Under the pieces are notes generated by a model that worked only from the letters and a program-made list of their open reading frames with translations, did not search any database and was not told the origin of the DNA. Positions 9,242 to 11,284 of a DNA stretch of 24,468 bases are shown here, piece by piece. The position numbers and the translations under genes were made by a program. Position 1 is the stretch's first letter. Each line of letters begins with the position of its first letter. Source of the stretch: Spirochaetia bacterium (GTDB lineage: Bacteria > Spirochaetota > Spirochaetia > Treponematales > Breznakiellaceae). Location: assembly GCA_026002305.1 (NCBI GenBank), contig BOBI01000016.1:1-24468 (forward strand). The letters are read 5' to 3'.

Positions 9242-11284
9242 ATGAAGAAATTTTTATTACTAGGCGGTGTCGTTACGGTTATAGCCCTGGCAATTTTTAT
9301 TGGCTGCTCGCAGCCCGCGGGCGAGACCGACGCCCTCGATGAGGATTCCGGCAAACTTCCCGCTTTAACGGGAAGCGTTTCCATTACGGGGGAGAAAGCC
9401 GTCGGCAAAAAATTAACGGCAAAAACATCCGCGCTGGGCGGATCGGGCGCCATAGCTTATAAATGGACAAGCAGCAGGGAGGGCAGCGCGGTTATCGGCA
9501 CAAGTCCAACCTATACGGTTGCGGAGGATGATAACAACTCAGTAATAAGGGTAACCGTTAGCCGTGCGGGTTATTCAGGGGTAAAAAACGCCTCTGCAAC
9601 CATCGGCACTGTGGAGCCTACCCCGGTAGTAACCCATGCCCCGGACGAGCCGTGGCTAATAGGCGAGCAGGGCCCCGCCGGCGGAACAGTATTCTTTGTT
9701 AATGATGACCCTGATACCTACAGGGATTGGGATTACCTTGAAGCGGCCCCCCATGATGTTCCGGGGCTGTTTGCATGGGCATCGGATGGTTATAAGGATG
9801 TTCACCTGGACGGGGAATTTTCCGTTGATATAGGCAAAGGCGAGGCAAATACTACCTTTATATTAGAGGCGGATCCGGACGCACCGGCGGCAAAAGCTGC
9901 TACAGGTTACGAGCTTAACGGCTTTACCGACTGGTTTCTTCCAAGCAGCGGGGAACTTAACGCGATGTACGAAAACAGGGCCGTTATAAACGGCGATTTT
10001 GCCGACAGCTTCTACTGGTCATCCTCGCAGAATCAGGATGCTAATGACGAAGCCTGGTACCAGAGATTCGATAACGGGGATATATATTACTACGGCAACA
10101 AATACGGCACACATTATGTCCGGCCCGTACGCGCCTTTTTAGCCACGCCGGAACCGACAGACTCACCGGAACCTGATCCAACAGTCTCGCCAACACCGTC
10201 GAGCACATCGACAGCCCCGCCGGAACCTTCTCCGACACCTAGTTCTACGCCGTCGGGTTCACCATCAGCCTCCGCCTCGCCAACACCGTCGGGTACGCCA
10301 ACAACATCCGCGACACCCACGGCTACGCCGTCGGGTTCACCAACAACATCCGCCTCGCCATCAGCGTCCGCCTCACCAACAGTAACGGCAACTCCGGCGG
10401 TAACGGCAACTCCGACAGTAACGCCAACGGCAATGGTAGCCATATCCACCGGAACCGCAATAAACACACCACCGGTCGGCCAGGTATTCATAGCGGGCCG
10501 TGACAGCGTGGCAACCATAAACGCATTTAAAATTGCCGCTTACGAAACCACATGGAGTCTGTGGGAAGAGGTACGCGACTGGGCAACATCAAACGGTTAC
10601 ACATTCGCAAATGCGGGTAGGGAAGGACACGGAACGGACGGAACCGGCGCGGAGGGAACAGACGAAGAAAGGGCGCTCCGTCCTGTAACCATGGTAAGTT
10701 GGCGGGACGCTATTGTATGGTGCAACGCCTATAGCGAAATGATCGGCAAAGAGCCTGTGTATTATAAAGGGAGTGACCCCACAACAATCCTAAGAAATTC
10801 CAACAACTCAATCGATGTTGATGCCGCGACATTTAATACATCAGCAGACGGTTACCGCCTGCCAACCGAAGCGGAGTGGGAATATGCGGCTCGCGGCGGC
10901 GTTCCGGGTAGTACAGAGTGGAATTACCCGTATTCGGGCAGTGAAACCATAGACAATGTGGCGTGGTATTGGAATAATTCTAGCACCCCTAACCTTTCAA
11001 CAAGCGATCCCGACTATGGCGCGCATCCTGTAGGAAAGAAGGCGGCAAACGGACAAGGGCTATTCGATATGTCGGGCAATGTATATGAATGGTGCTGGGA
11101 CCGGCATGGAACTATCACTGCTACAACTCCTGCGACGGGGCCCGATTTGGGCACGCAGCGCGTTTGGCGCGGCGGTAGCTGGGGCAGCTCTGATAACTAC
11201 TGCGAGGTTGCCAACCGTTTGGGCAACAATCCCGACCACAAGTCCAAAAATGTGGGGTTCCGTGTTGTGTGCCCCGTAGAATAG
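9242..11284 (+). CDS. Lectin-fold (FGE-sulfatase) lipoprotein, TvpA-like
   Basis: This is a 680-residue surface lipoprotein with lipobox FIGC (C22) and a good ribosome binding site (AAGGAG). Domains in order: an Ig-like domain (about 43-122); a DUF1566-like lectin-fold domain (about 137-299, with PSSGELNAMY and YVRPVRAF); a Pro/Ser/Thr linker (300-400); and an FGE-sulfatase domain (about 412-680) with YRLPTEAEWEYAARGG (538-553), GLFDMSGNVYEWCW (606-619), WRGGSW (642-647) and GFRVV (672-676). True FGE enzymes have two cysteines after RGGS; here the first aligns with S649 and only C654 remains, so catalysis is unlikely and ligand binding likelier. The C-terminal arrangement matches DGR variable proteins such as Treponema denticola TvpA. 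Its paralogue lies at 23157-24468. The start copy at 9045 is a remnant. Confidence 0.85.
   Translation: MKKFLLLGGVVTVIALAIFIGCSQPAGETDALDEDSGKLPALTGSVSITGEKAVGKKLTAKTSALGGSGAIAYKWTSSREGSAVIGTSPTYTVAEDDNNSVIRVTVSRAGYSGVKNASATIGTVEPTPVVTHAPDEPWLIGEQGPAGGTVFFVNDDPDTYRDWDYLEAAPHDVPGLFAWASDGYKDVHLDGEFSVDIGKGEANTTFILEADPDAPAAKAATGYELNGFTDWFLPSSGELNAMYENRAVINGDFADSFYWSSSQNQDANDEAWYQRFDNGDIYYYGNKYGTHYVRPVRAFLATPEPTDSPEPDPTVSPTPSSTSTAPPEPSPTPSSTPSGSPSASASPTPSGTPTTSATPTATPSGSPTTSASPSASASPTVTATPAVTATPTVTPTAMVAISTGTAINTPPVGQVFIAGRDSVATINAFKIAAYETTWSLWEEVRDWATSNGYTFANAGREGHGTDGTGAEGTDEERALRPVTMVSWRDAIVWCNAYSEMIGKEPVYYKGSDPTTILRNSNNSIDVDAATFNTSADGYRLPTEAEWEYAARGGVPGSTEWNYPYSGSETIDNVAWYWNNSSTPNLSTSDPDYGAHPVGKKAANGQGLFDMSGNVYEWCWDRHGTITATTPATGPDLGTQRVWRGGSWGSSDNYCEVANRLGNNPDHKSKNVGFRVVCPVE

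What the first reader, a model, noticed from the sequence alone, without database searches (positions are those of the whole stretch)
11117..11284. C-terminal patch of lectin-fold lipoproteins looks like a DGR variable region
Comparing the gene ending at 11284 with the inverted paralogue at 23157-23330, the sequences from the GACCGG codons to GGGTTCCG differ in many codons. Much of that change is in the first two codon positions with the last base kept (AAC/TAC, AAC/TCC, AAT/GAT, GAC/GGC, CAC/GAC, GGC/AAC, ACT/AAT). The bases just after it (GTTCCGTGTTGTGTG and the 3' flank) are nearly identical. Known DGRs diversify exactly this segment of FGE-sulfatase/C-type-lectin proteins by adenine-directed mutation, and TvpA of Treponema denticola is such a lipoprotein. 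Not all sites fit adenine-only change (TTG/ATC, GAT/GCG, TCC/AGG), so ordinary divergence is still possible. No reverse transcriptase or template repeat is in the window.
Basis: partly seen in the sequence, partly recalled or inferred. Interest (0 to 1): 0.82.

Follow-up and report, generated by a model that had tools for sequence, protein, structure and literature searches.

The report
Remote target regions of a retroelement
Two surface-lipoprotein genes in this piece of a Treponema-like genome end in patches rewritten from a shared template by a diversity-generating retroelement elsewhere in the same genome, whose enzyme gene now looks broken.

Summary
The window is contig C16 of a draft genome (2.23 Mb, 64.5% complete). 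Contig C129 carries a diversity-generating retroelement (DGR): lectin target gene, HRDC accessory gene, reverse transcriptase (RT) and an adenine-rich template repeat (TR). The TR matches 11 variable regions (VRs) on 10 contigs, two of them in the window. Over a 100-nt core, template adenines are changed in 223 of 396 cells and other bases in 52 of 704; each of the 11 VRs shows the bias alone. Window VR 11155-11254: 18/36 A, 10/64 non-A. Window VR 23292-23184: 19/36 and 4/64. The closest solved structure to the protein is TvpA of Treponema denticola. Non-A changes are not random: one template column differs in 8 of 11 VRs, so the template has probably drifted. The RT frame is split near residue 283 by nested repeats, so in this assembly the element looks dead and its targets frozen. 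A shared hairpin-bearing flank follows 9 of 11 VRs. New member of a known kind: TvpA-type DGR with many remote targets.

The parts
9242..11284 (+). Target gene 1: lipoprotein-like N-terminus, Lcl_C (DUF1566) domain, Pro/Thr/Ser-rich linker, C-terminal FGE-sulfatase (lectin-fold) domain, 680 aa
   Evidence: ORF; PF07603 residues 219-297; PF03781 residues 422-676, E 1.7e-39; best solved structure 2y3c, TvpA, E 5.1e-31
11142..11275 (+). VR W1: stretch homologous to the template repeat C129:3336-3478 (77% identity); mutated core 11155-11254
   Evidence: (A 18/36, non-A 10/64, Fisher p 3.3e-4)
11255..11271 (+). Conserved block after the VR core, GGGTTCCGTGTTGTGTG; candidate initiation-of-mutagenic-homing (IMH) region
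   Evidence: 0 of 17 mismatches to the TR; 7 of 11 VRs have none, 4 have one
11315..11355 (+). Hairpin behind W1: 19-bp perfect stem, loop AAA
   Evidence: fold z-score -6.55
23157..24467 (-). Target gene 2 (5' end cut off by the contig end): linker and C-terminal FGE-sulfatase domain
   Evidence: PF03781 E 8.7e-40
23167..23288 (-). VR W2: stretch homologous to the template repeat (80% identity); core 23292-23184, with a 9-nt insertion relative to the TR
   Evidence: alignment; A 19/36, non-A 4/64, p 2.3e-7
23082..23122 (-). Hairpin behind W2: 19-bp perfect stem, loop TCT
   Evidence: fold z-score -7.87

Best explanation
The two patches are remote variable regions of a single-template DGR of the TvpA type. 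An RNA carrying the TR (on contig C129) is reverse-transcribed with errors at its adenines, and the cDNA replaces the 3' end of lectin-domain lipoprotein genes that share the 3' block and lie all over the genome. Shown by sequence: RT, HRDC gene, TR, 11 VRs, adenine-directed mismatches, lectin-domain targets. Inferred: reverse transcription in trans, the role of the 3' block and hairpin in target choice, surface display, and ligand or partner binding as the function. In this assembly the RT gene is split by nested repeats, so the array is most likely frozen now, with W1 among the copies left longest without rewriting.
For: RT on C129 (E 9.8e-20) with IGNLTSQ and YMDD; nearest solved structure 8ub7 'Reverse transcriptase'. 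HRDC gene upstream (PF00570), as in the T. denticola DGR (PMC4891356, passages). TR found by DNA search, not by an adenine-biased search: 13 places, one of 21 nt at E 0.28 dropped, leaving TR + 11 VRs. A 223/396, non-A 52/704; worst single VR p 3.3e-4 (W1); VR beside the RT A 22/36, non-A 0/64. Pretended-template control. Paralogue identities by segment among 6 proteins compared: N-part 83-99%, linker 63-83%, FGE 67-77%, VR 31-56%. Relatives: in 7 of 9 relative loci scanned a strong TR/VR pair lies near the RT.
Against: RT frame interrupted, so current activity is not supported. W1 and C19 have 10/64 and 9/64 non-A changes, more than a freshly rewritten VR should have (the RT-linked copy has 0/64). 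In the upstream control domain A is also somewhat more variable than non-A (0.18-0.23 against 0.12-0.15). The protein search found no second allele of the W1 gene differing only in the VR (best other hit over the query region 68% identical), so no population evidence was obtained.
Confidence: 0.95

Rival explanations
1. The DGR is still active in this organism: an intact RT exists in the unassembled third of the genome or in sister cells, and acts in trans on all these VRs.
For: The genome is 64.5% complete; the RT-linked VR has no non-A change in 64 sites, so it was written recently; 7 of 9 relative loci scanned have RT with TR/VR pairs.
Against: Only one PF00078 match in the assembly and its frame is split by 380 nt of repeat sequence.
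Confidence: 0.3
2. The VRs were written from an older template (or a second, lost TR), and the present TR is a drifted descendant; this explains the non-A differences.
For: Non-A mismatches are not random over columns: column 98 (template C) differs in 8 of 11 VRs with A, T and G all seen; 0 of 20,000 permutations reach 8. Column 87 differs in 5 of 11.
Against: Seven of W1's ten non-A changes lie outside columns 87 and 98-100, so ordinary point mutation is needed as well. No second TR was found. Columns 98-100 are next to the conserved block, so incomplete replacement near the priming site would look similar.
Confidence: 0.55
3. Ordinary divergence with diversifying selection or gene conversion on a lectin binding face, without a DGR.
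For: The paralogues are mosaic: near-identical N-parts with diverged C-parts. Variable positions would be favoured by selection anyway.
Against: It does not predict a non-coding copy next to an RT in which 36 of 100 core bases are A and the changes sit on those A positions, nor the 7.6-fold ratio against 2.0-2.5 for any VR as template.
Confidence: 0.03

Closest known systems
Treponema denticola DGR (TvpA / TDE2269 and remote targets; Le Coq and Ghosh 2011, recalled; Nimkulrat et al. 2016, PMC4891356, passages read)
   Same: FGE-sulfatase lectin-fold lipoprotein targets with the VR at the C-terminus; one TR serving several unlinked targets (2 to 7 per strain; 7 in ATCC35405); HRDC accessory gene overlapping the RT gene.
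   Different: Here the TR lies behind the RT and overlaps the 3' end of its frame, where T. denticola has the TR before the HRDC gene; at least 11 VRs here; an added Lcl_C domain; RT interrupted.
DiGReF cassette group 3, TR overlapping an end of the RT frame (PMC3521204, passages)
   Same: TR overlapping the 3' end of the RT frame; also seen in 5 relative loci here (L057, L059-L062).
   Different: The paper lists at most four VRs per DGR within its search range; here the targets are dispersed over 10 contigs.
Bordetella phage BPP-1 DGR target with hairpin/cruciform (PMC3240598, passages)
   Same: Inverted repeat downstream of the VR.
   Different: Loop of 3 nt (TCT or AAA) instead of 4 nt GRNA, and the stem begins about 44-55 nt after the conserved block, where the paper gives 4-34 bp after the VR; HRDC gene in place of Avd (Avd recalled, not searched for here).
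Thiohalocapsa PB-PSB1 DGRs (PMC10907252, passages)
   Same: Many targets in one genome (15 targets, 21 VRs); degenerate loci; MITE-like repeats at DGR loci.
   Different: Nine DGR loci in four classes there; one TR and one RT found here.

Membership tests
DGR variable region (product of adenine-directed mutagenesis) | A template repeat in the same genome that matches the patch | tested here: met
   C129:3336-3478; W1 77%, W2 80% identical
DGR variable region (product of adenine-directed mutagenesis) | Mismatches concentrated at template adenines | tested here: met
   223/396 A against 52/704 non-A; 11 of 11 VRs individually; control
DGR variable region (product of adenine-directed mutagenesis) | C-terminal position in a C-type-lectin-fold protein | tested here: met
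   (sequence match to FGE-sulfatase family and to TvpA 2y3c); no structure was predicted
DGR variable region (product of adenine-directed mutagenesis) | Conserved 3' block (IMH) that differs slightly between TR and VR (IMH*) | tested here: inconclusive
   Block conserved, but identical in TR and 7 of 11 VRs; the TR/VR difference starts after it
DGR variable region (product of adenine-directed mutagenesis) | Hairpin or cruciform just downstream of the VR | tested here: inconclusive
   Uninterrupted stems of 9-19 bp behind 8 of 11 VRs, a ninth (C50) has a one-base mismatch; distance and loop differ from the BPP-1 rule; may also be a terminator
Complete, active DGR | RT with DGR-type motif and catalytic YMDD | tested here: met
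   (IGNLTSQ, YMDD); that GxxxSQ marks DGR RTs is recalled
Complete, active DGR | Uninterrupted RT reading frame | tested here: not met
   frame matches relatives to residue 283, then about 380 nt of nested repeats, then the C-terminal piece
Complete, active DGR | Accessory gene beside the RT | tested here: met
   (HRDC, PF00570); Avd not searched for
Complete, active DGR | VR polymorphism in a population | not testable with these tools
   No reads available; protein search gave no second allele

The most novel reading that the evidence does not exclude
A decapitated DGR: one template built a repertoire of at least 11 unlinked lectin lipoproteins, each marked by a shared 3' flank that serves as the target tag, and repeats then broke the RT, freezing the repertoire, which now evolves by point mutation and by recombination of near-identical N-parts. 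Two further truncated copies at the ends of contig C77 would belong to it.
Probability: 0.45. Interest if true: 0.55.

Novelty: new member of a known kind. Interest (0 to 1): 0.5.

Why it matters
It shows from sequence alone that one template has written at least 11 scattered target genes in an uncultured Treponema-like bacterium, more than the seven reported for T. denticola ATCC35405 (PMC4891356). The non-A changes give a relative clock for when each target was last rewritten, and the split RT makes loss of the system and the fate of its targets observable. It also offers a conserved 3' flank as a testable target tag.

Tried and rejected
Ordinary divergence: rejected. Assembly artefact as the source of the RT split: not excluded, but the two RT pieces lie on either side of the repeat in the order and frame of intact relatives, which favours a true insertion. 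Population evidence: one search listed 120 of 7472 proteins and gave no second allele of the W1 gene; P0009 (no named source) shares 96% of the N-part (291/302) but its VR is only 15/32 identical, so it is a paralogue or another strain's gene and proves nothing by itself. IF-2 fusion on C27: looked for the lost IF-2 C-terminus in the genome; nothing matched, without a positive control. Not done: structure prediction, read mapping, search for Avd, adenine count for the G006 matches. Absence of the 3' flank elsewhere in the genome is only as good, which scored 40 of 88 first-look candidates. Searches for prior print: (full-text listings; DGR + Treponema + termite) gave one unrelated paper and none; papers in subscription journals are mostly not held.

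Full report
What the window is. The window is contig C16 of a 2,225,504-base draft genome in 352 contigs, 64.5% complete. Records with the closest RT genes are Spirochaetes: the 15 best of 80 listed loci (158 confirmed) are titled Treponema, Spirochaetia, Spirochaetales or Spirochaetaceae. The organism itself is not named.

The observation. Two genes end in FGE-sulfatase domains: 9242-11284 (+) and 23157-24467 (-), the second cut by the contig end. Between them the terminal patch differs at codon positions 1/2/3 in 13, 12 and 7 of 32 codons, against 37, 37 and 26 of 210 upstream. Over all pairs of ten paralogues (C27 left out because its upstream part is different) the fractions are 0.42, 0.39 and 0.14 in the VR and 0.16, 0.18 and 0.13 in the domain before it.

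The retroelement. One PF00078 match exists in the genome, on C129. C129 (4338 bases) carries, in order, a target gene with a VR, an HRDC-domain gene (PF00570), the RT, and an A-rich copy of the VR, the TR, at C129:3336-3478. The HRDC frame (L001:789-1316) overlaps the RT frame, whose likely start is L001:1291 (inferred from relatives). The last piece of the RT frame ends inside the TR (L001:2676; TR begins at L001:2646).

Template and targets. A plain DNA search with the TR gave 13 places: the TR itself, 11 VRs and one 21-nt match at E 0.28 that I dropped. The VRs lie on C129, C50, C57, C36, C18, C27, C86, C35, C19 and twice on C16. In the 100-nt core, mismatches occur in 223 of 396 cells at template A and 52 of 704 elsewhere (G 9/220, C 31/330, T 12/154). 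The copy next to the RT has 22/36 and 0/64. W2 has 19/36 and 4/64. W1 has 18/36 and 10/64, the most non-A changes of all 11. All 11 are individually biased; the weakest is W1 (p 3.3e-4). As controls, any VR taken as template gives an A/non-A ratio of 2.0-2.5 against 7.6 for the TR, and in the domain upstream A is changed in 0.18-0.23 and non-A in 0.12-0.15 with four genes taken as template.

The non-A changes. They are not spread at random: column 98 differs in 8 of 11 VRs and column 87 in 5 of 11; in 20,000 permutations none reached 8. Column 98 shows all four bases among the VRs, as an adenine in an older template would. Without columns 87 and 98-100, 35 of 660 remain, 7 of them in W1. I read this as template drift plus age, W1 and C19 being the oldest writings.

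The proteins. The W1 protein has a lipoprotein-like start, an Lcl_C domain (PF07603), a Pro/Thr/Ser-rich linker and the FGE domain. Its best solved relative is 2y3c, T. denticola variable protein 1 (E 5.1e-31), aligned through the VR. Among six proteins compared, identities are 83-99% for the N-part (two of them incomplete there), 63-83% for the linker, 67-77% for the FGE domain and 31-56% for the VR. The target beside the RT has a different N-terminus. Two more truncated copies of the FGE domain lie at the ends of contig C77, without their VR.

The 3' flank. The first 64 nt after W1's stop recur behind 9 of the 11 VRs, and in the 44 listed matches this part was not seen elsewhere, but only 40 of 88 candidates were scored. 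An uninterrupted stem of 9-19 bp follows 8 of the 11 VRs; C50 has one mismatch in it; the C129 and C57 VRs share another flank with a longer inverted repeat. Folding z-scores are -6.55 (W1), -7.87 (W2) and -3.61 (C129); of seven relatives' flanks five are at or below -3.4, one is -2.03 and one -0.15; the two TR flanks folded give -1.20 and -2.00. This resembles the target hairpin of BPP-1, but loop and distance differ, and a terminator role is not excluded.

The RT is split. The first piece matches intact relatives to their residue about 284 and the second from about 283. Between them lie about 380 nt (L001:2102-2481): an outer repeat found at many places in the genome, itself interrupted by a 258-nt element with 33-nt inverted ends (L001:2218-2475). 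A copy of part of the outer repeat is also in the window at 2634-2734. Loss of the C-terminal part should abolish activity, which is inference.

Relatives. Ten loci were scanned for TR/VR pairs with an adenine-biased scan, own C129 included; 7 of 9 relatives gave a strong pair, L058 none and L068 only a weak one. Summed over the 7, A 155/300 and non-A 21/797; these are selected for the bias and so illustrate rather than test it. In L057 and L059-L062 the TR overlaps the end of the RT frame, as here; in L063 and L066 it lies before the RT. RT relatives were found in 11 of 39 genomes searched, own included. FGE-domain matches at E 1e-20 number 11 in this genome and up to 19 (G006) among 58 genomes; G006's own TR matches 6 further places.

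Comparison with what is known. T. denticola has the same kind of system with 2 to 7 targets (PMC4891356, passages). TR overlap with the RT end is DiGReF group 3 (PMC3521204, passages). Multi-VR DGRs are common: 271 of 948 in PMC6642488 (passages). Repeats and degenerate DGR loci are described in PB-PSB1 (PMC10907252, passages). So this is a new member of a known kind, notable for the number of dispersed targets and the broken RT.

Noticed in passing
L137 (G000:C27:11000-21133), VR at C27:15531-15675 (-): A 1068-aa open frame joins translation initiation factor IF-2, minus its last ~70 residues, to a DGR lectin domain with a VR; NusA-like gene upstream. Could be a real fusion or a misassembly; only about 10 nt look shared at the junction, and the lost IF-2 end was not found in the genome.
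   Followed up: partly
L001:2102-2481 and window 2634-2734: Nested MITE-like repeats: an outer element at many places in the genome, interrupted in C129 by a 258-nt element with 33-nt inverted ends; the composite recurs at 97% on C87.
   Followed up: partly
G000:C77:3-254 (-) and C77:10249-10380 (+): Two truncated FGE-domain copies at both ends of one contig, probably further targets whose VRs were not assembled.
   Followed up: no
G006 and G046: Related genomes with 19 and 18 FGE-domain matches, possibly larger target sets than this one.
   Followed up: partly
window 16276-16942: Two overlapping small genes that look like an antitoxin and a PIN-type toxin pair (reading only, not searched).
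   Followed up: no
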